Shown here: positions 9,801 through 32,163 of the stretch, in pieces | Position numbering within the stretch: position 1 is the stretch's first letter | Layout: the number at the start of each line of letters is the position of its first letter | Source: Dioscorea cayenensis subsp. rotundata | Lineage: Eukaryota; Streptophyta; Magnoliopsida; Dioscoreales; Dioscoreaceae | Direction of reading: 5' to 3' | DNA: 64,000 nucleotides | NCBI RefSeq assembly: GCF_009730915.1 | Contig: NC_052479.1 | Location: forward strand, 29,761,610 to 29,825,609 | Notes under the pieces: model-generated | Told to the model about the DNA's origin: nothing | What the model saw: the letters and a program-made list of their open reading frames with translations, nothing else | The model's database searches: none | Position numbers and translations under genes: made by a program

Positions 9801-12479
9801 TATAACGAAAGCAGATTTACTTGTAATTAACTCGTTAAATGTGCTGAATATAATTTCTTTGCTTTCTTGTGAGGTTTACCCAGGTTGTTTGGGGAATTCC
9901 TTGTTCTTTAATATGATTGATGACACACAGCTATATAATTGTTCTGATCTTCGGGATATGGCCAAGTTGTAGTAGTTATAAAGATTTTACAGTTTTTACT
10001 CCATATTAATTTTGGAGGAATGTAACTCACTTTGATTGATTGTCATTAATCAGGTAGGACCTACTCCTACTCTACTCAAGGCAGAGGTTCCATGGTCTGC
10101 TCGAAGAGGAAATCTTTCTGAAAAAGAACAAGTTCTGAAAACTGCGAAAGGGTAACTAGCACAAACATTGAATCTAACATAGAGAAATTTTCCCTTTTGA
10201 TTCTTTTTGAACTATATTTATGCAAGATAACCTTTATTGTAGCCTTTTTCTAGTGGAGACTCATTGGGCTTGACATACTTAACAGCTGCAAGACAAATAA
10301 ATAGGGATTTATGCTCATTGGATGAATTGAATGTCCTATGTATGGCATATGAACAGAGTTTATAAGTTAATTTTTGCTCCTGTATACTTGCAACAGACTA
10401 TGGACATTCCTTATATTTTTTTCCCTGAACAGGCTGTTTCTGAAGTTTTCTAATATGATCAACTGTGGTTCTGATTGATTGATAACATTAATTTTATAAC
10501 TTTTTTTTTCTTTCATGTTTGATGCAGTATACTGAACAAACTGACTCCAGAGAAATTTGATCTTCTCAAGGGCCAATTAATTGATTCAGGAATCACAACA
10601 CCTGATATTCTGAAGGTATTTGTGCCATCTTCTGTGAATTTTCTTTTGTCGAATTAAAAATTTTGGCTTAGCTTTGACTTGTGATCTTGTTCTGCTAAAT
10701 ATGCTATAATATTGCAGAGTGTCATCGAGCTCATATTTGACAAAGCGGTCTTGGAGCCAACCTTCTGCCCCATGTATGCCCAATTATGTTCTGAGCTCAA
10801 TGAAAGCCTTCAACCGTTTCCATCTGAAGAGCCTGGTGGAAAAGAAATTACATTTAGGCGCATTTTACTAGATAACTGCCAGGAGGCATTTGAAGGTGCT
10901 GACAGTTTAAGGGCCGAGATCAGGAAATTGGGTCCGGAGCAAGAAATTGAACGGCAGGATAAAGAAAGAATACTTAAGCTCCGAACTCTTGGTAACATCC
11001 GCCTTATCGGAGAGCTTTTAAAGCAAAAGATGGTGCCGGAGAAATTAGTTCATCATATTGTTCAGGTTCAGAGATTTACTATTTCTGATTTTTCTGCTTT
11101 TCTTTGGTGGACTTTGCAAAAATTTTCCTACTAAGTCTATGTTTCACATGACAACTACATGCAGGTGCTACTTGGACATGACCCCAAAGTATGTCCTGCA
11201 GAAGAGAATGTCGAGGCACTTTGCCAGCTCTTCAATACTATTGGCAAGCAGTTGGATGAAAACAAAAAGTCTCGGCGTTTTAATGATGCCTACTTCAACC
11301 GGGTGAAAGAGTTGACTAGAAACCCCCAACTCGCAGCACGTTTGAAGTTTATGGTTCGAGATGTTCTAGATCTGCGTGCCAATAACTGGATTCCTCGTCG
11401 TGAAGAGGTATTCTTTTCTACTGATTCAACGTGGCCCCTTTAATATTTACCTGTTCTTTGACAGATATCTCATTTTCTTGCTTCCCCTGATTTTGCAGAT
11501 GAAGGCAAAAACAATATCAGAAATCCACACAGAGGCAGAAAAGAATCTCGGGCTGCGTCCTGGAGCAACTGCAAGCATGAGAAATAGTCATAGCACCGGC
11601 TCATTGGGAAGCCCAGGTGCTTTCCCTGCAAATATTCCTCCCGGTATTGGTGGTATGATGCCTGGAATGCCCGGTGCAAGAAGGATGCCCGGAATGCCAG
11701 GACTCGATGGCGACAACTGGGAAGTTCAGCGAACTAAATCTTCGCACAAGGGTGGTGTTTCTTCTGCGCAGTCTCATGTTCTCGGAAAGCCATCCTCTAT
11801 TAATCCCCGGCTATTAATACAAGGCAGCAGCAGCGTTATAGCTGGGAAAACTAGTGCATTGTTGCAAGGCTCACGGTCTTCTTCTAATCCAGTTTCTGTT
11901 TCGATGAACCCTTCAAAGCCTCTTGCTCAAACAATTACCGAAAAGGCTGTGCCTGCTTCGAGATTGAGCACTGATGAGCTGCATAAGAAGACGGTTTCTC
12001 TCTTGGAGGAGTACTTCCACATCCGCATGCTTGACGAAGCATTCGAATGTGTGGTGGAGCTCAAGAGCCCGGATTACCATCCGGAGCTTGTCAAGGAGGC
12101 CATCAATCTTGCATTGGATAAGGGATCGAATTGTCCCGAGTTGGTTGGGAGGCTCTTGGAACATTTATTCGTCAAGAAGGTTCTCACATCAGGGGACCTC
12201 GGAACTGGTTGTTTGCTTTATGGCTCAATGATTGACGATATCGCCATTGACCTACCGAAATCGCCGTCACAGTTTGGTGAAATTGTCGGGAAGTTGATTT
12301 CGATCAATGCTGTGAGTTTTAAGACTGTAGAAGAAATCCTGAAGAAAGTGGAAGATTCAATGTTTAAGACGCCGATATTCATTGCCGCGTTGAGAAATGT
12401 CGAAGTGAGCTCGTCTGGTCAAGCGATTATTAGCGCGCAATCGGCAGATATTGAAGCTTGTCGGAACTTGCTTTCTTGA
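6891..12479 (+). CDS. eIFiso4G: Eukaryotic translation initiation factor isoform 4G
   Basis: Scaffold of the plant-specific cap-binding complex eIFiso4F; binds eIFiso4E, eIF4A and eIF3 in the cytosol. Nine exons join with consistent phases: 6891-7037, 8553-8624, 9215-9310, 9493-9684, 10054-10151, 10528-10615, 10718-11065, 11165-11407 and 11499-12479, giving 754 residues. The start [15 protein letters not shown] matches the family N-terminus. A MIF4G HEAT-repeat domain runs from about 202 to 430 ([37 protein letters not shown]). A Gly/Met/Pro-rich linker follows ([15 protein letters not shown]), then an MA3 domain from about 588 ([14 protein letters not shown]). No frame break is seen. Intron 1 (1.5 kb) contains a tandem array. 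Related proteins include eIF4G, which is much longer at the N-terminus; length and start favour the iso form. Confidence 0.97.
7460..8420. repeat. Tandem array of an approx. 280-bp unit in eIFiso4G intron 1
   Basis: Three full copies and one partial copy begin near 7466, 7748, 8003 and 8348 with variants of AGAGGCAATAATC, followed by AGAAGATTGGTTAGTTCAT, TTAGGATTTATTTGACTGA and TTGGGTCTTTACA. Copies differ by many substitutions and small indels, so the array is old. Confidence 0.85.
8091..8202. repeat. 56-bp recent duplication inside the intron array
   Basis: Two units, 8091-8146 and 8147-8202, start TTCCTTTGGGGCTTT and differ at only about one base. This is much younger than the surrounding 280-bp repeat. 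Confidence 0.9.
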
Positions 12480-13558
12480 AAGGAAATTATGGAATGTTTG
12501 ATCATGAGAAGTTGAAAGTTGTCAGGTCTGTAGTTTTGATAAAACTCTGTTTCATTTCTATTTCTATTTCCATTTTTTGTTTTTTGTTTTTTTGTTTTTG
12601 GGTCATTTAGAGGTGAAAAACTTGTGTTATAATGAGCATAAGCAGAGGTGTGATGGATATTTGATTTTGTTGAGTTTGTATATTTCTGCGAGATTAAAAT
12701 CAGTGTCTGATTATCAATTCAAGATGAAAGAAAATGAAATTTTCTAGCTTTTCTTTTGTGTATAGATATGTGTGTGTATATTTTGTAACTATATAAAAAA
12801 ATGACATAAAAATGAGTGAAAATAATGTGAATGCAATATGAGTTTCTAAAAAGATTAATATCAAAGTTGCCTCCTAATGAGATCTTTACTAAGATGTGAA
12901 TTAGATCTTTAATCAGATAAAATGCTTTAAAAATACCTCATATTTCATTTATTTATTTGACAGAAATGTCTTTCAGTTTTTTTTAAATAAAAACATGTAA
13001 TATTAAATGAAAATTTATGTGGAGAATACGCAAATGTCAGACTGTTTTGAATTTTTCATAAATTTATAATTCATTTTCCCTTATTATCTAAAACAATTTT
13101 TTTTTTAATTTTCATAAATTATTGTTGTTAATTAATTTTTTTCCTTCCAAGAACTAAAAGTTAATTCCTCTTTTTAACTAAGTCACTATAAAAGCACTTC
13201 TCATACACTGAAAAATTAAATAACTTCAGTCAGCCAAACACAGCTAATTTTTTCTTTTAAAACCCAAAAAAAATGGGGTAAGAATTGTTTCTATTGAAAC
13301 CAATCCAAACTTGCATAAATAAATCAAGTGTGAAAAATTGTTGTCTTGAGTAAAGCTTCTCTTACATGCACACATAATATCATCTGTGGTGAAATGTTCA
13401 TGTGAGATCGATGTTTGATCGTTATAACTAGAATGAACTTAATTTTTTCTTTTTCCGAAGACATAAAATCACTTCGTTTATCTTCGAAGTACTCCGAATC
13501 GATTGAATCGCGCAGACTCTGAGAAAGCAAGAAAGCATTAATCTGCTGATTCAGTGTG
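12480..13558. other. Convergent 3' intergenic region
   Basis: Contains the 3' UTRs of eIFiso4G (+) and AlaRS (-) and AT-rich spacer. No further gene is seen. Confidence 0.7.
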
Positions 13559-16500
13559 CTACCTCAACTTGAGTGACGCGAAATTAGCCGCGATATCCAT
13601 GGCCTCTTGAACATTAGAGGCATTACTTCCCTGTAAAGTTCATCAAACAAGCCGAAAACAATTAATCAAACAAGATAGTGTTAATTATTTGTTTTTTTTA
13701 ATCTGTTTAACGACGAACCTGGCCTTGAGCAATGCCATTTTTCCCTCCACCACCTTTCCCTTTAAGAGGCACCATTGTAGCAGTCAGCCACTCAAGAACC
13801 ACCAAACCATCCTTCGATCCATTGTTTGGCACTGCTGCGCATACCAGCGCCTTGTTCGTCGTCTCATCCGTGCTGAATATCATAATCGGCAATCCCTGCA
13901 TAAAAGATTTCAATAATTGCAGAAAAAGAAAACACTAAATCCGAGTTCCCGACAATTGGTTTCAAAGGATTAGTCCCCGGACAATCTTGTTTCCATTTAC
14001 CTTCTGATCCACGACCTTGAGCACGGCTTCTCGAACTGCAGTGGTGTCTAGACCCACATTGACACGGATTAGGCAGAATGCCTTCGATTGTGAAACAGCG
14101 GCATCGGCTGCGTCCATTGCAGCCTTTATTGCTTTTATGGATATTTTCCTCGCCAATCTTCTTTTTCGCCTTCCTAAGTTGATCCTGGTAAAATGAAAAG
14201 ACAAAGTATGAACTAACCTTTTTCTTCAGTTCACTGGTAGCATATGATTTGAATGAATAAATAGTTTTGTATACCTCGAGTTGGGAGATCTTTGCTCTAA
14301 GATCTGCTTTCAGGGCTGCTGGAATGGCAGCAGCATCTGTTTTGCTTTTAAGGGATGCAACTTTCTGTGAGAAACACATGGTAAAATTAACATCACAATT
14401 TTATTATAAAACGTATTAATCACAAACAGAACTGAAATTCAGAATCCAAGATAGATACAAGTCAGTATATCTCCAGCTTGACAATGGTAATGCACAATGA
14501 GAATCTACCACATTTATCAATGACCGATAGACGACAAAGTTCTAATCTCACTCCTGATAGCATGGGTATGAGAGAATGTAAGTTCACATGCCAATGCTCA
14601 ATAATAATGTCGTAAGCTATAGTTCCCTAAACCTTTGGAAACGATAGAAATATATCACGATGACAAGATAATTATCTTGCTATAATGATTTTTTTTTTCC
14701 TTTTTTAAAATTACCTTCTCCAGTATTGCTCCTTCGGATTTTGATGCATCTTTTATTTCAGAATCAAGAGAGGCAGCCAACTCCAATGCCTTGAATGCAA
14801 GCTCAGTTGTCACTGCAGTTACTCTACGAACTCCCTTCGCAATTCCCTCCTCAGATAATAACGCAAAGGCTTTTGCTTCCCGTGTGTTTGATATATGTGT
14901 TCCTAACATGGTTACAGAGAGGATAGTTTTATGAAATGGGAAAATAAAAGCGCACAAAGACTTTTTTAGAGGTTACCAAAGGACTACCTCCACATAATTC
15001 TGTGGAAATTGACAACCACTCTTTGCTATCTGGATTGGTAAGAATTTCCTCCACCTTCCGTCCAATGGACACAACCCTAACTGGGTCAGGATAGACCTAC
15101 AATGTGGATGGCATAGAAAAGAATGCTTGAGATTTTACAGGATATGAAGTATGCTGAAAGAATCATGGGAGGCAACAATAACTCACTTCACCAAAGACAG
15201 CTCTTAATCCATTAATGAGTTTTGCATCAGCCAGTTTTGTCTCGGTTGCAAAAACATCCAATTCATCTTTAATCTGTTGATTCACGATTGATTCAATTTT
15301 TCTCAGGTCTTCTGGGTGGATAGGTTTCCCTGTTGACAGTTCATTGAAGAAATATGAAGCTGCTCATATGCCAATACTAAAGTGAATCAATGTAAAAAAT
15401 TTACCATGAGAGAAATCAAATCTTAGCTTTTCAGGTAGAACAATGGAACCCTTCTGATCAACATGATCACCAAGTACCTCCTGCAATTATTTGAAGAAAT
15501 AAGGGCAAGGTAGACGGGAATAGATTTACAAGTGAACTTTTTAAAACATGAATTTTTCATACCCGAAGTGCAAAATTTAGCATATGAGTGCATGTGTGAT
15601 TAGGAGCAATAAGTGCCCGTCTTCCAAAGTCAACCTGCCATTTAACCAGAGATGGTGTGCAAGCAATAATATATACAGATCACTCTAAAAACAGTAGCAT
15701 AAAATAATCAACTATTGACTTTCAATTTCACCTTGCAGATTACTTCGTCACCAACTGAAAGTGCCACTGTCCCTCTTGAAAAAGAACCAATGTGGACAAT
15801 GAAGCCAGCATACACTTGAACATTATCAACTTGAAAACATCCAAATGATCCTTCAAGAGACCCGATATCATATATCTGAATTCACAGCAAATGAGTCAAA
15901 CAAAGCAATTTTTGGTGCATATATTGTAGTTATGGATGAGACAGAATCAGGAATTTCAAAGAACTGAAACATTCAAGTTCTAAGTTTCAAGGCAACTGAT
16001 TTGCTTTAATTGCTTTTTTCGTAAATATCACAGCCTAAAACTATAAAGCAAGTTTTAAGGAGGATAGGAAAATCGATATGTACCCACATGTCAATGTAAT
16101 GTACTTGGTTTTACCTACCTATCTTATGCACAAATTTCAAGCAAAGAGTAAGTCATGATATGGGTTATTTCAAGCATGATTCTGAGAAAGAACACACACG
16201 AGATACCAATATTTTGGATAACAAGTTAGCAATCTCCATTATATGTTTCTGAAAAGAACTTCATGGTTAGATATCAATAGTTAACAAATAAAATACACTG
16301 TTAAAGCTTCTACATGGCATTGAAGGTAAAGAAAGATGAAATTAAGCCAGGTTTGTTTTAGTTTCAGTTTTTATCACTATACCTGACCACCTTGCTCAGC
16401 ATAAAAGCTTGTACTTTCAAGAACAATACCAACATCAGCACCAGGAGAGACTGTCTCTAGAAACTCGGACCCTGTGTAGATAGCTTTTACCACACTTTTG

Positions 16501-19500
16501 TGGTCCTAACAAAAGAAATAAAACATATAAAATATGAGCAACGGATTATAACTGTTCAACTTTCAAGTAGATGAGAATATTCCTTAGAGATCATCTGAGA
16601 ACCAAGGTCCATCTGACATTCTAATACAGGTCAAAGACATACGAAGAGCAGACTTTTAAATTATAGTAAACATCTAACATGGCATGGATTTTGGAGAAAC
16701 CCAACCTTATCCACATGCAAGATTAAGTAACATTGTAGCAGACTAAAAATCTCAATTATGGTGGCTAATACACAAATTATCCTTCATATAGCATCATTCT
16801 CTAGTCCATGCATAGAGTACTGTCTGCATATTAAATATCACTGGTAACATAGGGAGAAAATAATGAGATCACTAATTACATAAAGAACATGAACCAATTT
16901 AGCAAACCTCAAATATGAATCTAACTATTAAAAAAGCATGTTGTGGTAGTCAATAACAAATGAAAAAACTAAACATGTTCTGTCATGAAAACAATTCGAA
17001 GGCCATGCCAGCATATGTTGACGAGCCATCTACATAATATAGTTAGATATGCAAACTTATTCTAGAAGGAGAACAACAGGCACTTGATTCTTAATTGTCA
17101 ACAATTTGAATGAACAACAGTCAAGATCCATTTCACATCCTAGAAAAGACAACACTATACGAACAGAAAAAATTCATAATAAATTTTCTCACCTTGTACC
17201 AAGTGAACTTATAGCTATCATCTGTTGCAGCCACTCCCCTTCTTCGCAGCTCTGATGTTGCATCCGCCTCCATAACAATAGAGTCACCGAGCAACTGCAA
17301 GCATTGATATAAACATCAAACAAATATAAAAGGCAAGTGGAGGAAAAAAAAAACATCTCTGATATTAAGGATCAAGTTAATATCTAAAAAAATGAAATCA
17401 CTCAAAGAAACTGTTCAGAATAAAAACAACAGACGCCTGGCAGGTGACCAACCAGAGGCACTCTAACAAAAAATAAACTGGATACTCAATGTGATTTTAT
17501 ACAAATAGTCCAAATGTTGTATGAAGACAGATCAATCCACATTGATAGCTCATGGTAAGTATTACCACCAAAACAGAATAACTTCGAAAACTTTTAATGA
17601 TGATATAGAAATGCATATATTCAACCTAAAGGAATGCTCCTGAAATAAGAAGGTAGAAGGTAGAAATAAATAACATTGAGGCTGTTTCTATACAAAACAA
17701 TAGGCAACTAACCATTTTTCAATTGAATATTTATAAAATAGTACAAATTCACATGTATGCCTGAGCTGATTCTTTGTACATATTAGGAACAATTATAATC
17801 ATTGGCAAGTATAGAGCATAGAGGATATGACTATTCCTAATAAACCAAATATAAAAGCAGCAGAAAAATTCAACCTTATTGCGGGCACTCCTGGCTTTTT
17901 CTCTGGCTTCTTCCATAGCAATATTAAAACCCTCTACATCAACAGTTAAACCTCTTTCTTCAGCCATCAGCTGTTGTAGTAGAACAAGGTGAGGAAAGGG
18001 GCAAATTACCATTTGAAGAAGCCTGGAATTATAGTTTTACACATACATAATATACAAGTGGTTACCTGTGTCAAATCCATTGGGAAGCCAAAGGTATCCC
18101 ACAAAACAAATGCATCCTGAAACCAAGACAATCAAACAATAACCACGCATTTAAAGTACATGAGTTCCAGCGAAAAATAGGCATATTTATCTAATGAATG
18201 AAAAAGTGAAGGTGAGGGAATCCCAGAAATGTTTAGGAAAATTATTGGACCAGTGAAAACAGTGTAAGTCATCTACTTTCCTCTTGTTAATGCATGTTAT
18301 AGCTTATGTAGATGAACTACATAGGTTAAAATTAATGTGGGTATCTCACAACAGTAACACTATAACACAGAATCATAGTTGATCATATGCATGAATGTTC
18401 AAAGAAATGCATGGATAAATAGATAAGAAGCGCATACCTGCCCACTCAGTTTATTTCCCTGAACATCCTGAGCAGCCTTCTTAAACTTCTCAATTCCCTA
18501 CAAATAAGAAAACACAACAAATATATTTCATAGAAGGAATACAAAATGAACATGTCTGTCTACTGCCTACCTACATATATACTGATGAGCATAGAACTTA
18601 TTTGACAAACAACATATGTGGAATAATATATTAACAACAGATACAACAAAGTAAATCTAATATGGCATGAACGATGTTTATGACTAAAATGGTTGCGACA
18701 GACACAAACATAATTTCACAAAAAATAAAATAAAATAAAGTATAACACCCTAGAACAACTTAAAATGCCAGTAGCTTGCATCGTGCTGAATAATAGTTGT
18801 TAAAAGGAGAAAAAGAAATAGCCAACATTCTAAAGTGAAAAAGTTCACAGATTGGATACAAGAAAACAAATATATATGGATCTGAAATGGAATGATACTT
18901 CCGCAAATAGTGTTAATTTCAAAATATAGTGAAAAAAGAAAAGAGAACGGATTTGCCAAATTTAAACTTTCACCTTAACTAATGTCCTCCCAAAACTTGC
19001 TTCCTCCTCTGCGATAATGTCTCTGATTTTTTTCTCATGCTGCTTTAGTTCAGGAAAAACATCACCCATCACTTCGACCACAACACCTACAAGCCTGCAT
19101 TGAATCATCTGATTATAATAGATACAAAAGCCATTTATAAAAAAAAATAAAAAAATAAAAAAATAAAAATAAAAACAGAAGATTTTGTTATAACTCAAGC
19201 AACAAATGAAGAAAAATAAATAAAATGATTACACCAAGTATATGCTTTGATTTAATACAGTGCAAGCATGACTTTTATATATATATATATATATATTAAA
19301 GACTTATGGCATAACCAACACAGAGCTTAGCAGGTGGTGTAAAAAACAAGACAATTAGATAACTAAGGTCCTCTCTCAATCAACATTCTTATCTGTTTCC
19401 TTCATACTCTAAGAAAACAGCCATTCAAATCAAAAGAGTAACAGAAACAATTGATAGGCCACAGAAAAGTATCAATAGAAGCTGAAATAAGAATGAAAAA

Positions 19501-21758
19501 TTAACACATAATTACATAAATTGTTTGAAACAAAAAATTTTCCTTACCCACTGAAAAATCCTTCTTGTGCCTTTAAGACTTCTCTACCATACCGCACAGC
19601 TCTTCGTAAAATGCGTCTTAATACATATTCTCTCCCCTCATTGCCTGAACACACAAAATGTTCTTGGGCATAAGCTATGTGACTTTTATGAAGTGGAGAA
19701 CAAAAGAGCAACTTTCACAGTTGAAGTGCAGAGAGTAAATATGATGGGCATTAAGGGACCTATATAAAGAGCTCATTGTATAAATCCATTACCACTCTGC
19801 TGAGTCTGCTCACGCTTAGAGATAGAAATTAAAAATTTGAATATATATTGTCTGATTTTATTGAATAGTCTGTTTATGTGCAATTTCTTTATACCAGTTC
19901 TAAGTGAAGAACTTTTTAATTAAATTTTCACCTGGACGAGAGCCATCGGCAATAGCAAAGGAGAGTGTTCTTATGTGATCAGCCACCACTCTATAAGCCA
20001 TATCAATTTTATCAACATCATCAGCCCCTACTTTTCCGGAGTATGGGCGAGCACCAGTTGCCTACAAGAAAGAAAAGGAGTGAACAAATTAATCAGCACC
20101 AAGTTCAGAATCATATCCAATTATTTGTTACAACTTAATGAATACATAGAGAAACAGAATGTTCCAGTTGAAGCTACAGTCTAATATGACTTCACCTGCT
20201 GGATGGCTTCAAATATTGGCAAGAATACATCAGTATCATAATTGCTCATTTTCTTCTGGAGAACAGAAGTGAGACGTTCAAATCCCAATCCTGTGTCCAC
20301 ATGTTTAGAAGGTAAAGGCTTTAATGTGCCATCACTTTCCCTATTGAACTGCACCCAAAAAAAAAAAAAAATTTCAACACTGTTTTTTAACTTCAAACAT
20401 GAGCACAAATAAGAATAATTTTCATTTTGAAATTATAAAAGAAATAAAAATTTCCAAAGTTCAACAACCAGGCTAAAGCATAAGAAGTAGGATTTATAGA
20501 CCTGTATAAATACAAGGTTCCAAATTTCAATGCATGTGGGATCATCATTATTGACCAAAGATGCAGCATCTCGGTTACCAAGGCGATCAAAATGGATTTC
20601 AGTACAAGGGCCACAGGGGCCAGTATCTCCCATCTCCCAGAAGTTGTCCTGTTCAGAATTCACCCATGGAAAATACATTATGAGAAGCAAGCATATCAAC
20701 AAGGTATGGAGTATCATCACTTCAATAAGACATGATGGAAATTTATAGAACAAAACCAGAAACACTTTCAGCAAAATGTGCAGAAGTATGGATATAGCAG
20801 TGATTTATTGAAATTAACAACATTCAAACTGTTCTGAATTTGATAGCACCACAGCTTACCTTGCAACCAAAAGGCAGCACATGACCTGGCGGCAAGTATT
20901 TCAACCATAAGTCCTTAGCCTCATTATCAGGTGCAAGACCAGCCTTTTCATCACCTCCAAAATATGTTGCATACAGCCGATCTGTGGGCAGTTTATAAAC
21001 CTGAATATCCATAAAAAATTACTCTTTACTTTCAAGTAACAAGTGCGGTTTTAATTTGGCAGCCATAAAGCTTAAATTTATCCAATTCTTTCCCAATTCA
21101 TCAAGACAGGAAACGCATCAAAAAGAGAATAACATACCAATAGAGCATCAAAAACAAACCACAATTAAACTCAAAACATTAGATAGAGCAGAGCCTCAGT
21201 AATAGATCCCCCAAGGACCAACTTCCCCAGCAAATTAAAAAGTGGGACAAAAACCATAAAAACCAGAAATTTATTTCAATAATAAGCGCAAGTCTACCAT
21301 AAAAGAAACAAACTTCTTCTAAACCCTCAATTCCCAAAAAATAATTTAAAGATAAAAAAAAAAAAAAGATTCAAGCTTTAGATCATATATACCACAGTGA
21401 GCAGCTCCCAAGCCCAGGCAATAGCCTCCGTCTTGAAATAATCCCCAAAAGACCAATTCCCCAACATCTCAAAGAACGTATGGTGATACGTATCCTTGCC
21501 AACATCATCCAAATCATTATGCTTCCCGCCAGCGCGGATGCACTTCTGGGTATTGGCGGCGCGAATGAGCTTCCCAAGCCCAGTGCTAGGGTTAGCAGTG
21601 CCGAGAAAGATGGGCTTGAACTGGTTCATGCCGGCGTTGGCAAAGAGGAGAGTAGGGTCATCAAGAGGAACGACAGGGCTGGATGGCCAGTTTGTGTGGC
21701 TCCTGCTCTCAAAGTAGGAAATGAAGGTATCCCGAACTCTTCTCGCCGGCCACTCCAT
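13559..21758 (-). CDS. ALATS: Alanyl-tRNA synthetase, dual-targeted type
   Basis: Class II enzyme charging tRNA-Ala. Transcribed right to left; 22 coding exons: 21758-21393, 21000-20860, 20648-20502, 20348-20196, 20061-19932, 19644-19548, 19094-18974, 18497-18438, 18116-18066, 17970-17875, 17294-17193, 16505-16383, 15875-15732, 15634-15563, 15480-15405, 15329-15187, 15096-14988, 14902-14715, 14364-14275, 14184-14001, 13895-13719, 13630-13559. About 946 residues. Catalytic core near the N-terminus ([27 protein letters not shown]), editing-site HTCTH at 590-594 and C709-x3-H713, C-terminal domain ending SLKLR. Exon 20 is 184 bases between two phase-0 introns and carries one surplus base at 14133-14136 that breaks the frame after residue 820; without it the conserved C-terminal domain reads through. 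The start used is the first in-frame ATG (MEWPARR); an open ATG-less extension precedes it. Confidence 0.96.
14133..14136 (-). other. Apparent +1 frame break in AlaRS exon 20
   Basis: On the minus strand the run is AAAA. Read as assembled, ENIHK continues SNKGC; with AAA it continues [12 protein letters not shown] and stays open into exon 21. The exon is 3n+1 long between phase-0 introns, which points to a surplus base rather than an unusual splice. Confidence 0.85.
19277..19297. repeat. (TA)n microsatellite in an AlaRS intron
   Basis: Pure TA run within the intron between exons 6 and 7. Confidence 0.9.
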
Positions 21759-21830
21759 CGCCGCCACCGATGAGAAAACCCTAACCCTAGCGCAGCGGAG
21801 AAGGGATGACTGGAGGAGGACGAAGGCCAG
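21759..21830 (-). promoter_or_regulatory. ATG-less in-frame N-terminal extension of AlaRS with CUG
   Basis: The AlaRS frame stays open for 24 codons upstream of the ATG. It begins at CTG (21830-21828) in the context ATACTGG, with A at -3 and G at +4, and the next in-frame stop upstream is TGA a few codons earlier. The peptide would contain [20 protein letters not shown]: hydrophobic, Ser/Arg-rich, no acidic residue, like a mitochondrial or plastid targeting peptide. It overlaps a telo-box-like AGGGTTAGGGTTT. Arabidopsis AlaRS is known to make cytosolic and mitochondrial forms from alternative starts; use of CUG here is inference. Confidence 0.5.
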
Positions 21831-23398
21831 TATGAGATTTTTTTCTCAAAAAAATGGACTTTTTAGTACTCTTTTATTCTGATTTTATGTTGACAGTGAC
21901 TTTGGTTATTTATAATTTAAGTATATTTGTTCAGGACCGTTGGATGGTGATCCAACGCTTATGATCATTTTTTATTATTACACTTATTATTAATATTACG
22001 GTAAAAAATAAGATGCATAATATTTTAATTGAATATAAACAGTATTACAATGAAATCACAATCATTGATATTTAGAGTAATAGATCATCTTATATAAACA
22101 AATAAGAATACTTCGTCGATCCCATTTTTCAAGAGTATGAGTCATTTTATTACTGTTTATGCTACTATTATATAATATCCATATTTTTTTCTCTTTCATG
22201 TGATTTCTCACATTTACTTTTTAAATACTACTTCTATGAATGACCCCAAAATGCATTTTTTTTTTATGTTTATATAAATTTTTGCAAGTCTTTATTCAAA
22301 TTCTATGTCATATTCCGAATCGAAATTAATATAAAATATATATTTTTAATTTTTAAAAAAATCATTTATTTTTGAGAAAAAAATTTTAAAAAATCAATTT
22401 GAAAAAAATTAAAAAAAGGCAGAAAGATTATGTGTCAAGTTTTTAAATAATTAATTAATTAAAAAAATTTAAAAAAAAACTGAAATAAAAAAAAATATCA
22501 TGGATAGTCATAACTTTTTGGGCTCAATATTGTCATACTGTATAATACTATATAAATATTATATAATATTATATATTATTTATTCAGTCTTATATACAAA
22601 TATTATATAAAATATCAATAGTTAATAATGTATACTGTGTAGGACTATCAAACTCCCAAAATGACCTCTTTAATGTTGTCATATTTGTTTATTTTTTAAA
22701 TAAGAAAAACTAGTAAGTATTTATTCAAGAGAATAAGTAACAATAAATCTACTAAAATATTGAGTATTCTTATTAGTTTTTATTAATTATCATTTAAATT
22801 ACTTGGAAACTTGGCTCTCAAGTTTTGACTCGTCTTCTAATCTTTTTATTTTTAGAAGAAAAAAAAAATTAGTTGGGTTCTTTTGCATTTATGCTTTGAA
22901 AACATGACAACTTGTAATTTTTTAAGGAAAACTTTTTATTAATCCTTCTTATTTTTTTTAATCATTTAGATTAGTCTCTTTGACAATTTAATATTCCCTA
23001 TGTTCTTAGTATATAATTGTCCCATTTCATTTCAGTGCTCTTTTTTATTTGTTCATTTATTGGATTAAAAAAATATTTATTATCATTTTTACAAATTTAC
23101 TGAATTTTAAAAAAATAGTAATCAGCATTAAATATATAGGTTTAACTGATGTACATATCAATATAATTATGTACTTTCTGCTTTTTTAGTCATTGCGTCA
23201 TTTTTAAATACAATTAAATCATCATATTTGATCGAGTTAAGTCATTATTCTAGTCTACGACAATATTTTTACATACAAAAAGTGAATCATGATATCAACT
23301 CAAGAAGCAGAGGAAGCTGATAACAAACAACATTGGAATTCATTCAATCAATTTTGTAACTCTGATAAGATTGGAAAGATCAATAGAACAATGCAATT
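21831..23398. other. AT-rich intergenic region upstream of AlaRS
   Basis: Very AT-rich DNA holding the AlaRS promoter and the 3' flank of the oxidoreductase gene. An AATAAAAG motif on the minus strand lies about 120 bases upstream of the AlaRS ATG. No gene is seen. Confidence 0.6.
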
Positions 23399-26300
23399 CT
23401 AGTATTTAACAAACCCGGTGTTTTTCTGGGCTTTGCCGAGTATTGATTCGGTATCACCCTGAAAAAGATTCAGTTTTTTAGCTAAAGCAAAACCACAGTA
23501 CATACCATCAACAGCAGCACTGACAATGCCGCCGGCGTAGCCTGCGCCTTCTCCGGTTGGATACAGCCTGTTCAGTGATGTGCTCTCGTAAGTATCAGAA
23601 TGCCGGGAAATCTTTAGTGGCGCGCTAGTTCTCGTCTGTGAGAAACAAGCAAAACATTAGCAATGAGTTCAGACCAAACCTTGGGATAATGACTTTTGTC
23701 ACAATACCTCGACACCGTGGAGAAGGGCGTCTTTGGAGATGAAACCTGGTAGCTGATAAATTGAAGCAGTTTTAAGTGGATGAAATCAATGAGTAAATGT
23801 ATTAAAGAAGAATGATGATTCGATTAAGAAACAGTGGCAGACCTCTTTGTCGAACATTGAAATTGAATGTTGCAGAGCTTGGGTTATTGGAGCAGGGTAC
23901 AAGTTGTGGAGATTTGCTGCCTTCACCCCCAAGCGGTAACTTGACAGAGGCAATGATGTCACTGAGAAATCAAAAAGCTGAAAATTATTCACAATTTTTA
24001 TTAAAAAAGCATTACAGGATTGGAATGATGTTTTACCGGACAATTTGTTGTTGAGGAAGTCGGTGACTGTCTGTGCAGGGACAACAAAACTTCCTCCGCC
24101 CATTAGAGCGGCTTGTTTTTCAAATTCTCTCTGAATGTCAAAATCCAACAGTAAAAACTGATGCTTTGATAGAACTGACAGTGATGAATCAGAAAATTTT
24201 TGATGAAGTAATACACTCTGAACCATTTTTATTAGTATGTGAAACACTGCCTCCATGCTTAAAAAAATTTACAGATTTGACTAATATGTTTAAGTGCATC
24301 AATGAACCTAAATTTTGTTTGAGTTGCTGAATACCTGAAATTCAACACCAGCAAGAGGCCCATGACATTTGAAGGCATCAAAATCATTTGAAGAAACAGT
24401 GATAACAACTGCTGCATTTGCCCATCTAGATGCACGCCGAGAAAAAGACATGCCATTGATGCAAAGTTCAGATGGATCAGTGCTGGTTAGAACCACCTGC
24501 CCACAAGCATTTAATTGATTAAAACTGTTGTTCATGTTATCAAATAATTCCAACAAATAAGGGATAATCACGTGTGATACCTGTCCACCAGGGCACATGC
24601 AGAAGGAATAACAGCTCCGAGTTTGATCTCCCAAATCAGAGCTTGTGTCAGCATTCCCTTCGCCAACATACTTCACCAATTTATAATCTGCAACAGGTAC
24701 CTTTCCACGCCCTTCACGAACTTCGGCGGCCAGAGCGGAATACTAGATATTTGCAAAAATATACCTTACTTAGGATAGTCATGAAACAGAAGGCTTGTGT
24801 GCAAGTGGCTGCAGAATATTATGGTCATTACAAATGAAGAGACCAATCATTACCAAGACATATTCCTGGCAACATTTTATTCTTGGGGAGTACAAATATG
24901 CAGGGAAATATAAAGGAAAATTATCAGACCCAAAAGACTGATAACCATCCTGAAGATATAGGTTCATTGGTTAAGGCATCAATACTTGCATCAAAACCAG
25001 GTAATATCTCAAGTGAAATATTGATAAAAAAAAAAAAACGAGCATGATACAAACATGATTTTCTTTCAGATAATAAATACGTTTATTAAAGACAACATCA
25101 ACATGCAACGAGGATATGAACAAAGGATCTCCATTGACCTATGCTAGGAATTGTTTAAAATATGACCGAGCAATACGGAAGGAGAATATAGTGACCATTG
25201 AATCACACAGAACTGGACTGAATGAAAGGGCAAGTAGAAACCACAACTTACTTGTATGCTATTTATTAGTTCCTGTGGATGCTCAATTCTTAGGCCAACC
25301 TGCTTAGAGAAGCAAATATAAGCATTCATATATAGAGTAGAAGGAACAGAATGACTTCGAGTATATTTAAATGACAGCTCTTTCCTATTATTTATTGTGA
25401 GACAAAATTTCAGAAATTCTCCAACAACAACATTTCAAATAATTCATTGGCATGAGATATGTAATCTTACAGCGAAATCCTTGGGAATTAAACCCACATT
25501 GTGCTGAAGGAGCATTTGATATACATCTCGAGCCGAGTGGCCAACTGCCAGAACAACAGCATCATAAAATAAGTTATAGCTGCCAGAACCAGGGTCCTGC
25601 CTAACGTTGGAAACTTTGACCCCCAGGACATTTTTATTTTCCACAATCAAATCATCCATTCTAGTGCTGAACTTTAAAATAACCTATAGTGATAAAATGG
25701 TAAGTTTTGTTACAATATTGATTGAAACCATAGGAGGAATTAATAGTGAAGTGCATATTATATCACTCACACCCAACTCTTCTAAATGATTTCGGAAGTT
25801 ACGTAGCAATGGAATCAACCGATCTGTTCCCAGATGAGGTTTTCCATCAATTAAGATATCCATAGGGGCTCCAAAGCGAACCAAAGTCTTCATCACCTGA
25901 TGAAATGACAGAAACATCAAGCCCCAAGGCACTTGAAACCGATTTGAATACAGATGTACATGCATGGTATGATAATTTTTCTTTGTCTCTTCAGTCTTGG
26001 TGTATTTCATGCACGAAGGTAGCTGCTTACTCTTTGAAAAGCATTATACTCAGAGCATGATAACAGATAAGACTTTAAACTTTAATGGCCTACCATTATG
26101 TGTTATTTTTCACAACACTAAACAATAAAACCTTGGAATAACCACAAAGGTTAAAAGTAATAAACAATTCTCACAGCTTGAACACTGTCACTGTTCCTTC
26201 CAATTCTGGTTACCAGTTTTCCATCACTCCATGTACCTGCACCACCCTGCCATGTATAAGTCTTTAATAAATGTAGTGTCTAAATTAGTGCAGTAGGATT

Positions 26301-28197
26301 ATTTTTGGGATTAAAAAGGTTAGAGATTTATATATGAAAGAGTATCAGAGTGCCATTTCTGACAAGAATGGAAATAAGCAAAATGATGTTCAAAGTCAGG
26401 TAAGTTCTCACAATTCACTACTCGACATATTAAAGCAGGACTCTGTGTTGTTTCTCACAATACGAAATAACCAATAAATGAGAAATAAATGTTGAAGGAA
26501 GCTGACTTCCAAAAAAAAAAAAAAACAAAAACAAAAGTAGCATTTGTAAAATTCGTAAGGTAAAAAATGCATTGCCAGGAAAAGACAAGCAAACTGCATT
26601 GTTAAACTGCCAGCACAATAAGCCTGTGATGCACATATGTTCATATAGAGTTTACCTCTCCAAAGCAAAAATTGCTATCCGATTGCAAGATCCTCCGGGC
26701 TACTAGAGCACCAATGTCACGCCCTCGTTGTTCAACTGGCTGCCCCCTTTCTATTAAGGTAACCTCTGCACCAAGTTCCACAAGCACAAGGCAAGCAAAC
26801 AAGCCTGATGGTCCGCTACCTACAACTGCTACCTTAGGCCTAGGATGGGGAAACTTGTATGAATTACTACTATCCATTTCTTGTTTTCCTTCTTTATTGT
26901 CTTTCGAATCATGTATAATGCTGATCAAATCAAGAGAAACCGTCTCACTGGGCATATACTCCACCAGCCCAACTTTATATTCTAAGCGATCAATAAAGTC
27001 CCAAGTGCGAGGCTCCAATTCAAGTAATTGCTTAACATCCATATCCACTGTATAAACAAACTCAGGTTCTTTCAGCAGCTGTAAAATCATCAAAACTAAT
27101 ATTCAGAAGCTCAGTCTGCTATGAAAAAACAATATACTTCAAATTTTACTTTTTTAAGATATAAATAATTCAAAGGGATTGAAGTAACTATTTACTTATG
27201 ATAAAAGAAAAACTGGATCAAAAATTTGAGTGGTAAAAATAAGAAGGAACTAGGTTTTATGATATAGGTCCTGACTCAAATATAGCATTTGCCATACAAT
27301 TGACAAGACTTGAGGCTAGAGTTTATGTTACAGAGAAATACACCATTATAATGCACTATTTTGCATTCTGAGAAACTAACCTTCCTTGCATCAAAGGATT
27401 TCCTGACGACGAAGAATGCTTCATGTGGCAGCATTGAAGCAACCTGCAGAAAATACAGACATTAGCTGAGACAAATTACACAAACATAAAAACCAAACTG
27501 CTGATTCAAAAACATAAGCATAATCATCATCATTAATCAAACATGAAACGTACAATAAAAACATTCGTTCGATTCAGAAAAATCTAAAGCTACAGGTAAA
27601 ATAATTAGCTATTTATAAATATAATAATGTGAATGAAGCATAAGGAAACAGTGAGCAAAAGGAACCGCCTTTCTCACTCATATAAGAACGATTAAGCAGC
27701 TAAAAATGGTGCATTAATCCAAACAAGTTTCCGAATTCTCAAAAACATCAACTTTATTCATTCTTCCAAACTCCAGACATAAAATTCTCCTCAAAACGGC
27801 AAATAAATTATCAAGAAAAATCAAAACAGCACCATAAACCACAAGAGCCAGCTCACCGGAAACTCAAGAACCTTAGCGATGGCCTCGAGCAACGGCGGCG
27901 ACACACCAACAAAATCCTTCCCAGGATCCTTACTAAGAGGAACACCAAGCTTCGAGAGCCTCCAAAACCCCTCCTTTCGGTTTTTAATGTCGCTCTTGAC
28001 TAGAGTTTCGGCCATTCTACGGAGCTTCTTCTTTCTCAGAGGGGTACCGCTGCTTCCCCCTCCTCTTCGCGCATTGAATCCCCGAAAACTCCGACCCGAC
28101 GAGGAGGGACAATCAAGGGCTTAGATGAGAGAAAAGCAGAGCTAGGGTTTGGGGTAGCACGGAGGAACGAAGGCGGGAAGCGAACGGTGGACGCCAT
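23399..28197 (-). CDS. PDE327: FAD/NAD(P)-binding oxidoreductase, plastid PDE327-like
   Basis: Flavoprotein of the NAD(FAD)-utilising dehydrogenase family (COG2509 type); the Arabidopsis member is, as I recall, the plastid PIGMENT DEFECTIVE EMBRYO 327 protein. The reaction is unknown. Thirteen exons on the minus strand: 28197-27857, 27443-27381, 27078-26656, 26246-26175, 25896-25771, 25683-25471, 25299-25252, 24742-24581, 24496-24335, 24130-24037, 23961-23843, 23752-23708 and 23635-23399, about 700 residues. The dinucleotide fold shows VAVVGSGPSGLFA (GxGxxG at about 221-226) with Glu at strand 2 (TLIERG); other conserved blocks are FCFGEGGAGTWSDGKL, VLAVGHSARD, CMCPGGQ and GEGAGYAGGIVSAAVDGM. 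The first 40 residues (MASTVRFPPSFLRA) look like a plastid transit peptide. Exon 1 needs two surplus bases removed (28080-28083 and 28032-28034) to link this peptide to the body. Confidence 0.92.
28032..28083 (-). other. Two apparent +1 frame breaks in oxidoreductase exon 1
   Basis: Three frames succeed each other here: the transit peptide ending RRVGVFG, then CAKRRGKQRYPSEK (the block I recall as conserved), then KKLRRMAETLVKS leading into the main body. Removing one G from the run complementary to 28080-28083 and one A from the run complementary to 28032-28034 fuses all three into one frame of 113 codons ending at the exon 1 donor. Confidence 0.75.
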
Positions 28198-28269
28198 TAG
28201 AAAAAGCTTGAGAGAGTTCTCAGAGAAGAAGAAATGAACCGAGATAAGGTTTTGGGTTTTGAGAACTTT

Positions 28270-28962
28270 AGTGTTTAGTCCCTGAATGATTTTCTATTTT
28301 TCTTTCTAGTCCTCAACAGTATGCATTTTGGCCCTAAAACTATGGCTTCACATGCAAATTGGTCCCTCAATCTCAAAGAAGTTAAATAGAAAAAGAAAAT
28401 TATTTAAAATTTTCTCCTGCAATTAAGAACCACTTAATCTATTGACACTGGATCCATTGTGCAGTTTATGTCCCAATCACTTATATATTGTACAGTTTAT
28501 GTCCCGATCTATTACAGTGAAAACATAAATCTACTGAGAGAGTAATTTCATCTATTAATATTATTCGTAAATATATATATATATATATAATTATGGTACT
28601 ATTTCATTCTCATCTCTGACTTTTATTATTATTATTATTTTTTTAATTTTTTTCCCCATAATAATCCATAGTATTTGTTTTAAGTTTTTTTCCCTATCAA
28701 TACCCTTGATACCTTCTCTATTTTATCAGACAATTTTGTGCTTTTAAATTAATTTGAATTTAAAAACTAGAAATGTTTTTAAAACATTTAATAAATTTTA
28801 GAAACTTTTTGAGGAATTAAAAACTTAGAAAGACCTATTGTTATTTTTCTATTAAAAGATCAACTAAGCAGAAGAAATTATAACTTAAATACAGAACTAT
28901 AATATACGATTTTCAATAAGTCATTGAAAAAAATTACTGACCTGTTGAGGGACTAATAGCAA
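28270..28962. mobile_element. Possible small non-autonomous DNA element
   Basis: The ends carry TTAGTCCCTGAAT (about 28275) and, inverted, TTAGTCCCTCAAC (about 28942-28955), with an internal TTGGTCCCTCAATCTC. The interior is AT-rich and non-coding. Such ends are common in plant MITE-like elements; a target duplication was not established. Confidence 0.35.
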
Positions 28963-29292
28963 ATAAAAACTTAATGGAAAGTAGAAATCATCAAGGGCAA
29001 CACATAAATATTGAAAGTAAACGCCTAATTTTTATAGCAATTTCACACATAAAATCAAACATCCAAAGTTTTGGAATTCAATTCCTCAATCTTTGTTCAC
29101 CACCAAACTTTAGAAAAAAGATTTTTCATTATTCAACCGACAATTTCAGCATCACATTTTGTATCACAATTCCATAACCGAAGATTTTCATGGCTCTGTC
29201 ACAAATATTGTTTGTGAATATCATAACAACTTCGGGAAAACCCTAATTCACCACGCCAATCTTCTTGCTAAATACTAAGTCATGCACATGTT

Positions 29293-29773
29293 TTACGAAA
29301 ATGAAGTGAAATCTTCAGGCCGCGCAATGTTAACTTCCTCAAAGTCATCATCATCTGAAATATTAGAGAGAAAAAACAAGTTTGAATCACAAAGTCAAGT
29401 CAAGAGATTGCATTTTCGATAGAAAGAATGTGCTCTAATGAAATTGATGAATTGTGGATGAAAAAGTGCGAAGAAAACCTTTCCTAAATGTTAATGCAAC
29501 GACAGCATCATTTTCAACCTGTACAGATAAGAAAACAATATAATCAGTGCATTTGACCAAATCAGCAGAAATTAGAGTTTCTTTTGTTACCTTCTGCTCT
29601 GCTAATGTTTTTGAATCAACCAAAATTTCGTTGCTTGATACTAATGTTAAGCGTTGTTTATCAGTTGGTTGATCGGTTAGGGCTTGCAGTTTCTGCTTGA
29701 TATCTGAAGTTTTTTCGGTTGGATCACACTGTATAAAGTACGTTGTCTTCTCACGCTTCACACGAATATACAT
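29293..29773 (-). CDS. Elongin-B-like ubiquitin-fold protein
   Basis: Small ubiquitin-like protein of the type annotated in plants as ubiquitin-like superfamily and resembling elongin B, an adaptor in transcription elongation and cullin ligase complexes in animals; its plant role is not established. Three coding exons on the minus strand: 29773-29591, 29518-29479 and 29354-29293, giving 94 residues. It starts MYIRVKREKTTYFIQCDP, shows the ubiquitin-fold LKxxL-like helix (DIKQKLQAL) and QRLTLVSSNEILVDSKTL, and ends with an acidic tail (DDDFEEVNIARPEDF). The ATG lies three bases after a good acceptor (TTGATTCAG), so the 5' UTR is split by a long intron, with the first exon probably near 31494-31620. 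Confidence 0.88.
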
Positions 29774-30860
29774 GGCCTGAATCAATGCAACAACAATGAT
29801 CATTGATTAAATGAGGACATTGGCATATTAATGGCCAACGAATGTCCAGACAAAATGGTAAGAAAGTATAACAACTGATGACTGTCGATAAATTACATAG
29901 AAGATTGAGAATATGACAAACAAGTTTTGCTTGCAGACCATGATATCTACGAACCCAAATAAGGCTGAAAATAGAAATCTAATACAAAAGTTTAAGGTTG
30001 ACCTTTTCGTCTAACCCAAAGCATGCATTCATGCATATATATATATATATAACTCATTCACAAACTTATTCAATAAAGAAGTGATTCAAAGGAAATTAGT
30101 GAGGAACATGAGGATAGTACAAAGGCATTCGATGATACCATATTCCAACGACGGTTTTTTTCAAGAATAAGTTTCAGTAACTGTCTCTGACAAACAGGAA
30201 ATGCAGCCAAGTAAGCAGGTTATTATCTGCATACAAAATAGAGAAGAACAGCTCATCCTTTATATGTGAGAAATAAACTGACAATTTATAATATAATTTC
30301 AATTTATTGCAGGCAGTGAAACAATATAATACACACTAAAACTTAAGTAAATCAAGTTCTTAAGCTACTATTGGTCCCCGAACAACAGCCAATGTTTGTT
30401 TTAGTTGGCTGAAAAACAATGTTTGATTTTATACTTCAGCTGGATGAAATTGTTTATTTTAGCCCCTCCATCAGTTACATCATGACTGATGCTGTCAAAC
30501 AGACTTTAACTTGGTATATCAATGTAAACAAGAACACAATTAATTATTAAGTTTTAGTTTTTTATGCCAAATTGCCAATATTTGCTAGGCAGCACTAAAA
30601 AGGACAAAGTCACCTAGTTCAGAGACAAAAACTAACAAAGATCCCAACTTCATAGACCGATACTAACTTTGAACTGTAAAACTAAGCATACTTTTGAAGA
30701 ACAAACAACAGAATGCTGAAAGAACAGAACTTCTAAGAAGTAATAAACTATGCATTGTCAGGAACAAAAATTAAAAACTAGATGCACAGATTTTGTTATA
30801 TCCTGGATAGAAAAAGGTACAAGAAACACAGCAAAAAAATATTAAAATAAAGAACTTCCA

Positions 30861-31262
30861 TAAAACCACTACTTTTCAAGGATTTCATTGTAACGAAAGC
30901 TTCAAGCTTGAAATCTAATAGAAACCACCCAAAAAAAAAAGGCTCTATAACCATGAATTCATCAACAACAACATGTTTATTAAAGAAAACAACTTCCTTA
31001 ACACCACCAGTTTCAAAAATTTCAATGTAACAAAAGCTTCAAGCTTAAATATTAATAGAAACCAAGAAAACCTATAACCATCAATCCATCAACAACAACA
31101 TGCTCATTAAAGAAAAAGAACATCCACAACACCACCAGTTTCAAAAATTTCACTGTAACAATGGCTTCAAGCTTGAGCATTAATAGTAAACAAATAAACC
31201 ATAGCCATCAATCCATAAACTACAACAAGTCTATTAAAGAAACTATAACCTCAACTGAACTT
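30861..31262. repeat. Tandem array of an approx. 130-bp unit in the 5' intron
   Basis: Three clear copies begin near 30866, 31002 and 31131 with CACCAGTTTCAAAAATTTC-like sequence, followed by GTAACAAAAGCTTCAAGCTT, a variable part, CCATCAATCCATCAACAAC and TTAAAGAAA. A partial copy follows near 31215. The array is AT-rich with no coding frame. Confidence 0.85.
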
Positions 31263-31493
31263 AGAATAGGAACGAAAGCATTGACATAAAAAATTGATTA
31301 AATTACTAAAAAAAATTTGATTCCAAACCATGCAAAATGACACCTTTCTAACGCGAAACTCAGTAGGCAGAGAAAAAAAACCCTAGATCCCCAAATCAAA
31401 CTCAGAGAAACAAAACATTATTGCTAAAGATCTCCAGAACAAACCAAAATCCGAAGGGAAAACCAAGAAATTGAGAGAAAGTTTGGAACTTGC

Positions 31494-31620
31494 CTTCAAA
31501 TAGGAATTTCTCAATGCGATTGGATTGAGTTCCGAATCGTTCAAATGGAACGCACCCGTGAAATTGTGGAAATCGGAGGAAAATCCGAGGGTATCCAAGT
31601 TTGCAGATAAACCCCTTCAT
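31494..31620 (-). other. Probable 5' UTR exon of the elongin-B-like gene
   Basis: A moderately GC-rich block next to the divergent promoter. On the minus strand it contains AAGGCAAGT near 31494, a good GC-type donor, which would pair with the acceptor at 29777. A GT donor alternative (CGGGTGCGT near 31557) also exists, so the exact end is open. Confidence 0.4.
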
Positions 31621-32163
31621 TATATTTAATAATATTTTTTTAAAAAAATCCCTTTTTTTTACTTTTCACTCTGAGTTTTTTTTTTCTTTTGACCGGGGAC
31701 TCTTTTAGTTTTACTTAAAAAAAAAAGTGAAATTAATTAATATCAAAATTCTAAAAAAATATCATTGTAAATTTTAAATTTAAATATTCAAATGTATATA
31801 TATTTTTGTCAAATCTACATTTCAACCTTTGAACCATATTACAGTTTTCTTAATGTTTTTCTTTTATTAAGATTAGTTAAATAATTATATTTTTATAAAT
31901 ATATATTATAAAAATAATTTTTTTCATCTCAGTTTTTAAAGCCCCACTCGGCTTCCGAAGAAGACGCCAAAACCCTCGAACATCAGTAGAGATAACATCA
32001 AGGAAGGGTTTTGCAGTGGTTTTGACTCTTCTCTATCCTTTCTTCTCCCAAAACCCTAATCAAAATCCCTCCTTTTTTGATTCCAATCAATCCCCAATTG
32101 ATACCAACTGGCGTCCTTAGCACCTTCGTTCCTTCTAATCCCTCCATTCCATGCCCATGGTCA
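31621..32163. promoter_or_regulatory. Divergent promoter between the elongin-B-like gene and RPOT
   Basis: The two transcripts point away from each other across about 540 bases. The core is very AT-rich (31621-31930) and both flanks hold AAACCCTA telo-box-like motifs (about 31379 and 32051). No coding sequence is seen. Confidence 0.55.

What the first reader, a model, noticed from the sequence alone, without database searches (positions are those of the whole stretch)
21756..21830. CUG-initiated targeting extension on alanyl-tRNA synthetase
The AlaRS frame is open for exactly 24 codons before its first ATG, contains no ATG, starts at CTG with A at -3 and G at +4, and is closed upstream by an in-frame TGA. 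The encoded peptide is hydrophobic with Arg and Ser and no acidic residue. In Arabidopsis one AlaRS gene supplies cytosol and mitochondria through alternative starts. Here the longer form may depend on a non-AUG codon, giving leaky initiation that would set the ratio of the two forms.
Basis: partly seen in the sequence, partly recalled or inferred. Interest (0 to 1): 0.72.

Follow-up and report, generated by a model that had tools for sequence, protein, structure and literature searches.

The report
Possible CUG-started plant alanyl-tRNA synthetase
A plant gene for the enzyme that loads alanine onto tRNA has, just before its normal start, a short readable stretch beginning with CTG that could send some of the enzyme to mitochondria; the idea is plausible and has close precedents, but it is not proven and could not be checked in other plants.

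Summary
The window is plant nuclear DNA. A cytosolic-type alanyl-tRNA synthetase (AlaRS) gene lies on the minus strand, ATG at 21758. The frame upstream is open for 29 codons (from TGA 21848-21846) without an ATG. CTG at 21830 (A at -3, G at +4) would add [24 protein letters not shown]. Leaving AAG/AGG aside, it is the only near-cognate codon in that context in any frame of the probable 124-nt leader. RVF|SS fits the published plant mitochondrial cleavage motif.

Against: an open, acid-free frame is largely leader composition (open in 34-69% of shuffles); the peptide is not amphipathic and has one Arg in its first 12 residues; RVRVF is encoded by a telo-box; the gene carries an apparent one-base frameshift elsewhere, so the assembly may hold errors. 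No plant relative was reachable, and the own-genome search did not complete.

Best reading (0.6): leaky scanning. A minority of ribosomes start at CUG and make organelle-bound AlaRS; the rest start at the strong AUG and make the cytosolic enzyme. Arabidopsis AlaRS does this with two AUGs, some yeasts with near-cognate codons. A phage-type RNA polymerase gene 10 kb away shows a second CTG-start pattern, in a family with established plant CUG starts.

The parts
21828..21830 (-). candidate CTG (CUG) start codon, A at -3, G at +4
   Evidence: leaving AAG and AGG aside, the only near-cognate codon with purine at -3 and G at +4 in any frame of 21882-21758
21759..21830 (-). candidate N-terminal extension of 24 codons, [24 protein letters not shown] (first residue Met if CUG initiates)
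   Evidence: shuffles
21768..21782 (-). codons of R-V-F|S-S, fit to the plant mitochondrial presequence / ICP55 motif RX(F/Y)|(S/A)(S/T)
   Evidence: motif in 0.35, 1.4 and 3.6% of shuffles under the three nulls
21776..21783 (-). telo-box (TAGGGTTT on the minus strand) that encodes part of RVRVF
21846..21848 (-). in-frame TGA that closes the frame upstream
21756..21758 (-). first ATG, start of cytosolic AlaRS, context GCG-ATG-G
21393..21758 (-). AlaRS coding exon 1 (class II catalytic core begins)
13559..21758 (-). AlaRS gene, ATG to probable stop in a last exon at 13630 to about 13559; rough model, some short exons may be missing
21909..21914 (-). TATA-like box; YR dinucleotides 26-39 nt downstream would put the cap 45-58 nt before the CTG
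   Evidence: inferred, not mapped

Best explanation
One AlaRS transcript supplies two compartments by start-codon choice. Shown by the sequence: an ATG-less open frame joined to the AlaRS ORF, a CTG in strong context, a cleavage motif, and a strong downstream ATG. Inferred: transcription starts near 21880; most scanning ribosomes pass the CUG and start at the strong AUG at 21758, making cytosolic AlaRS; a minority start at the CUG and make a form beginning (M)[23 protein letters not shown], which is imported into mitochondria (perhaps plastids too), cut after RVF, and charges imported cytosolic tRNA-Ala. The inefficiency of the CUG sets the ratio of the two forms.
For: Frame open for 29 codons without an ATG, in frame with AlaRS. 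CTG 21830 is the only strong-context near-cognate codon in any frame of the 124-nt leader, AAG/AGG left aside. RVF|SS fits the plant cleavage motif (PMC4986872, PMC8847149 passages). No ATG on this strand between the TATA-like box and the main ATG. G+C change point at 21830, support 21827-21838. Arabidopsis AlaRS is dual localised through two AUGs (PMC7600831 passages) and tRNA-Ala genes were lost from mitochondrial genomes before the angiosperm ancestor (PMC13308715 passages). Fungal AlaRS switched between upstream AUG and near-cognate starts (PMC7049704 passages). CUG is the most used near-cognate start in plants (PMC11062462 passages). A phage-type RNA polymerase gene in the window shows a like pattern, and Nuphar RpoTp starts at CUG (PMC3022604 passages).
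Against: Openness and lack of acidic residues are expected from composition, and another leader frame is also open. No amphipathic helix: 94.7% of permutations have a maximal 18-residue moment at least as high, other settings ordinary. One Arg in the first 12 residues, against a four-Arg rule. The motif lies on a telo-box, common in plant 5' UTRs. No hairpin downstream of the CTG beyond chance. Codon usage of the extension does not favour its frame clearly. In RpoT the G+C change point is far from the CTG. Apparent frameshifts in the assembly. Arabidopsis has a second AlaRS gene classed as chloroplast-mitochondrion, so another gene could serve mitochondria. No conservation test was possible.
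Confidence: 0.6

Rival explanations
1. Ordinary 5' UTR: a pyrimidine-rich leader with a telo-box that reads by chance as a presequence. Organellar AlaRS comes from another gene.
For: Open frame in 34-69% of shuffles, no GA dinucleotide in the 72 nt, another real frame open for 34 codons. Telo-boxes are concentrated in plant 5' UTRs (PMC3022908 passages). Peptide not amphipathic. Arabidopsis AT5G22800 is classed as a chloroplast-mitochondrion AlaRS.
Against: The full set of features is rare even with the telo-box kept (0.19%, chosen after the fact). The stretch lies where Arabidopsis AlaRS has its mitochondrial signal. AT5G22800 was not detected in purified Arabidopsis mitochondria in that study, though other data sets show it at low levels.
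Confidence: 0.22
2. The long form exists but starts at an AUG hidden from this reading: an upstream exon spliced into the leader, or an assembly error at or near 21830.
For: AG sites at 21809 (score 0.1) and 21780 (4.3) lie within the range of 19 real acceptors of this gene (-4.7 to 10.3). Two ATG-exon combinations fit the 21780 acceptor. The window has apparent frameshifts, and CTG differs from ATG by one base.
Against: Zero combinations at 21809 and two at 21780, of two acceptors tested among nine AG sites; neither product is an obvious presequence. Upstream DNA from 21900 to 23300 has 12-29% G+C per 100 nt. The AlaRS frameshift is in an A-run, and 21830 is not in such a run.
Confidence: 0.13
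3. The CUG form exists but goes mainly to plastids, or to both organelles, rather than to mitochondria.
For: Hydrophobic start (AFVLL) with one early Arg resembles the plastid specificity domain described in PMC8847149 (passages). Arabidopsis AT1G50200 was classed as cytosol-chloroplast-mitochondrion.
Against: RVF|SS is a mitochondrial-type site, though dual-targeted proteins share it. AT1G50200 was not detected in purified chloroplasts and its transit peptide fused to GUS did not reach them.
Confidence: 0.05

Closest known systems
Arabidopsis AlaRS AT1G50200 (passages of PMC7600831 and PMC13308715; Mireau 1996 itself not held)
   Same: Same enzyme; one gene serves cytosol and mitochondria; the signal lies directly upstream of the cytosolic start; short form from a downstream AUG.
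   Different: Upstream start is AUG and adds 48 residues; here CUG, 24 residues, untested.
Yeast AlaRS with near-cognate starts: S. cerevisiae (ACG codons), S. pombe, C. albicans (passages of PMC7600831 and PMC7049704)
   Same: AlaRS whose mitochondrial form starts at a non-AUG codon upstream of the cytosolic AUG.
   Different: Fungi; experimentally supported in S. cerevisiae; ACG there, CUG here.
Nuphar and tobacco RpoTp (passages of PMC3022604)
   Same: Plant nuclear genes in which a CUG opens an organelle-targeting peptide.
   Different: A polymerase; in Nuphar CUG is the sole start; plastid target; shown with GFP fusions in Nuphar.
Arabidopsis ValRS, ThrRS and GlyRS with two in-frame AUGs (passages of PMC7600831 and PMC8770321)
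   Same: Dual localisation of an aminoacyl-tRNA synthetase by alternative starts in one mRNA.
   Different: Both starts are AUG; other synthetases.

Membership tests
Dual-localised aminoacyl-tRNA synthetase by alternative initiation (plant AlaRS type) | cytosolic-type synthetase ORF from a downstream AUG | tested here: met
   exon 1 matches human cytoplasmic AlaRS and tRNA-synt_2c; strong AUG context
Dual-localised aminoacyl-tRNA synthetase by alternative initiation (plant AlaRS type) | in-frame upstream extension with presequence properties | tested here: inconclusive
   cleavage motif and net charge +3 met; amphipathic helix and early Arg not met
Dual-localised aminoacyl-tRNA synthetase by alternative initiation (plant AlaRS type) | one gene supplies both compartments (no other organellar cytosolic-type AlaRS) | not tested
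   own-genome search did not complete (20 requests); no second exon 1 in the window
Dual-localised aminoacyl-tRNA synthetase by alternative initiation (plant AlaRS type) | codon-level conservation of the extension | not testable with these tools
   the scans gave 10 viral-contig loci at 58-63% identity and 80 kept genome-contig loci with bacterial titles, no plant
Dual-localised aminoacyl-tRNA synthetase by alternative initiation (plant AlaRS type) | long form found in the organelle | not testable with these tools
   needs proteomics or GFP fusion
Near-cognate (CUG) initiation with leaky scanning | near-cognate codon in good context, no in-frame AUG, frame closed upstream | tested here: met
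Near-cognate (CUG) initiation with leaky scanning | no AUG between the near-cognate codon and the main AUG | tested here: met
   no ATG on this strand between 21968 and 21758
Near-cognate (CUG) initiation with leaky scanning | hairpin downstream of the codon (helpful, not required; recalled) | tested here: not met
   z-scores 1.29, 0.81, -0.13 and 0.27
Near-cognate (CUG) initiation with leaky scanning | mRNA includes the codon | tested here: inconclusive
   TATA-like box at 21914 predicts a start near 21880; 5' end not mapped
Near-cognate (CUG) initiation with leaky scanning | initiating ribosomes at the codon | not testable with these tools
   needs ribosome profiling

The most novel reading that the evidence does not exclude
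A plant AlaRS whose only mitochondrial supply depends on a CUG start, as in some yeasts, and whose cleavage site RVF|SS arose from the telo-box of its leader, so that a leader element common in translation genes was turned into part of a targeting peptide.
Probability: 0.2. Interest if true: 0.62.

Novelty: new variant of a known kind. Interest (0 to 1): 0.45.

Why it matters
If true, plants, like fungi, can replace the upstream AUG of AlaRS by a near-cognate codon, and plant gene models would miss organellar isoforms wherever the presequence has no ATG. It would give a case for asking how CUG efficiency sets the cytosol-to-mitochondrion ratio, and whether telo-box leaders are a source of new presequences. 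The evidence here is one sequence, so it is a lead and not a result.

Tried and rejected
N-termini of 7 of these 90 loci were read; they are bacterial and of no use for the leader. No second AlaRS exon 1 in the window (tblastn).

Downstream hairpin: not beyond chance. Rfam, 13000-33000: no match at gathering scores. Codon usage of the extension: uninformative. Amphipathic helix: tested, against the reading. Spliced upstream AUG exon: two acceptors tried of nine AG sites in the leader, 0 and 2 combinations; unlikely, not excluded. G+C change point as a start-codon mark: falls on the CTG in AlaRS and 2 nt from the probable first ATG of the FAD-oxidoreductase neighbour, but 167 nt upstream of the RpoT CTG; mild support only. 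NCBIfam gave only AlaRS models for exon 1 and weak FAD/NAD-domain matches for the neighbour.

Literature: ten searches ran (two were for the cleavage motif and the telo-box). I saw no plant AlaRS starting at CUG in the listings, nor in the passages of 12 papers and the abstract of one that I opened. The library does not hold PMC161156 (Mireau 1996), PMC1242274 (Christensen 2005), PMC7605272 (Li and Liu 2020), PMC3245939 (Chang 2012) and PMC6380273 (van der Horst 2019), so this is no claim of absence from print.

Full report
What is there. The window holds intron-rich plant nuclear DNA of mostly 30-40% G+C. On the minus strand an AlaRS gene runs from the ATG at 21758 to a last exon at 13630 to about 13559. 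Exon 1 matches human cytoplasmic AlaRS (E 7e-53; query residue 5 aligns with residue 4 of chain 5knn_A) and Pfam tRNA-synt_2c (E 6.7e-60). The first 18 modelled exons join into 764 codons; exon ends were picked by score and stop-free joining was required, so the lack of stops is partly built in, and short exons may be missing. The ATG at 21758 is the cytosolic start, in the strong context GCG-ATG-G.

The leader. Upstream and in frame come 29 open codons, then TGA at 21848-21846. The next ATG upstream on this strand is at 21968, beyond a TATA-like box at 21914; the in-frame ATGs listed up to 22600 all run into stops before the extension. The candidate start is CTG 21830, A at -3 and G at +4. 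Leaving AAG and AGG aside, it is the only near-cognate codon with purine at -3 and G at +4 in any frame from 21882 to 21758. YR dinucleotides 26-39 nt from the TATA-like box would give a cap 45-58 nt before the CTG. The cap site is inferred.

Chance. Three nulls of 20,000 shuffles each (the 124-nt leader, its 72-nt part, and that part with the telo-box kept) gave an open frame in 34, 61 and 69%; open and acid-free in 13, 61 and 69%; open with at least three Arg/Lys in 30, 31 and 47%; open with the cleavage motif in 0.35, 1.4 and 3.6%; a strong-context in-frame near-cognate codon in 6.1, 4.9 and 4.5%; all together in 0.01, 0.06 and 0.19%. The 72 nt hold no GA dinucleotide, so Asp and Glu cannot occur there in any frame: absence of acidic residues is not separate evidence. 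Of the two other real leader frames one has stops and one is open for 34 codons, acid-free in its last 24, with fewer than three Arg/Lys there. All features were chosen after seeing the sequence.

Is it a presequence? RVF|SS at residues 17-21 fits RX(F/Y)|(S/A)(S/T), given for Arabidopsis mitochondrial presequences and the ICP55 peptidase (passages of PMC4986872 and PMC8847149). Cleavage would leave a 19-residue presequence, inside the reported range of 7-117 but short of the mean of 43. Net charge is +3. Against it, the maximal 18-residue helical moment is 0.16, and 94.7% of permutations do at least as well; five other settings are ordinary (21-72% of permutations at least as high). Only one Arg lies in the first 12 residues, where PMC8847149 reports a four-Arg rule for mitochondria. 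The RVRVF codons lie on a telo-box, an element concentrated in plant 5' UTRs (passages of PMC3022908). This can be read as chance, or as the raw material of the motif.

Composition. The maximum-likelihood G+C change point between 22300 and 21600 is 21830 itself (support 21827-21838; 62.5% G+C in 21759-21830 against 23% in 21831-21882). In the neighbouring FAD-oxidoreductase gene it lies at 28195, 2 nt from its probable ATG at 28197. In the RpoT gene it lies at 31941, 167 nt before that gene's CTG. Three genes are too few, and a transcription start could also explain the shift, so this is mild support.

Prior biology. In Arabidopsis the AlaRS mRNA has two AUGs, the upstream one adding 48 residues that carry a mitochondrial signal (passages of PMC7600831). 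Mitochondrial tRNA-Ala genes were lost before the angiosperm ancestor; the cytosolic-type AT1G50200 was found in Arabidopsis mitochondria while the chloroplast-mitochondrion AlaRS AT5G22800 was not detected there in that study and was low in others (passages of PMC13308715). In fungi AlaRS uses two AUGs in Cryptococcus and Neurospora and a near-cognate codon in S. cerevisiae, S. pombe and C. albicans, and the authors infer repeated substitutions (passages of PMC7049704). CUG is the most used near-cognate start in plants (passages of PMC11062462; 14.1% of alternative sites in PMC8770321). On the other side, the abstract of PMC9789052 reports that ribosome-profiled human non-AUG extensions far outnumber those with phylogenetic support: even a translated extension need not be conserved. 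That the window's plant is an angiosperm is inferred.

A second case nearby. A phage-type RNA polymerase gene starts about 10 kb away on the plus strand (RPOL_N E 1.2e-27, RNA_pol E 1.1e-34). Its first-exon frame follows a TGA directly and its first ATG is 60 codons on, at 32282. CTG at 32108 (C at -3, G at +4) would give (M)[26 protein letters not shown]..., and three out-of-frame ATGs precede 32282. Nuphar RpoTp was shown with GFP fusions to start at CUG, and tobacco RpoTp is reported to (passages of PMC3022604). Whether this gene is RpoTp was not tested. It makes CUG initiation in this plant more credible but says nothing directly about AlaRS.

Assembly quality. AlaRS exon 14184-14001 is 184 nt long although both ends are at phase 0 in my model, and its open frame changes part-way: an apparent one-base frameshift in an A-run. 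The probable first exon of the FAD neighbour has no single open frame. A base error at 21830 hiding an ATG is thus possible, but 21830 is not in a homopolymer. An indel inside the 72 nt would also break the frame; I put this risk at a few percent (estimate).

What failed. The collections scanned gave no plant. Conservation and a second AlaRS gene, which would decide the matter, are untested.

Verdict. It would be a new variant of a known kind: plant AlaRS dual targeting with a near-cognate codon in place of the upstream AUG.

Noticed in passing
32102-33070 (+), CTG at 32108: Phage-type RNA polymerase (RpoT) gene whose first-exon frame has no ATG for 60 codons after a TGA; CTG would open (M)[26 protein letters not shown]..., and three out-of-frame ATGs precede the first in-frame one. 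RpoTp of Nuphar and tobacco start at CUG.
   Followed up: partly
14001-14184 (-): AlaRS exon of 184 nt with phase-0 ends in my model: an apparent one-base frameshift in an A-run, assembly error or real.
   Followed up: partly
27856-28197 (-): Probable first exon of the FAD-oxidoreductase neighbour starts MASTVRFPPSFLRATPNPSSAFLSSKP but no single frame is open through it.
   Followed up: no
L011-L015, L017, L019: AlaRS N-termini of Phycisphaerales and other planctomycete metagenome-assembled genomes are 72-78% identical to this plant cytosolic-type AlaRS, the top of the 80 kept hits; of possible interest for the origin of the eukaryotic enzyme.
   Followed up: no
21776, 29238, 31378, 32051 (AAACCCTA); 28143, 39337, 42694, 49084, 59047, 60450 (TAGGGTTT): Ten telo-boxes in the window, some of them in gene leaders (AlaRS, RpoT) or a first exon (FAD neighbour).
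   Followed up: partly
about 63120-64000: Run of N: an assembly gap at the end of the window (one search shows X in the translations).
   Followed up: no
11370-12476 (+): 369-codon open frame with an MA3 domain (Pfam PF02847, E 1.4e-25).
   Followed up: no
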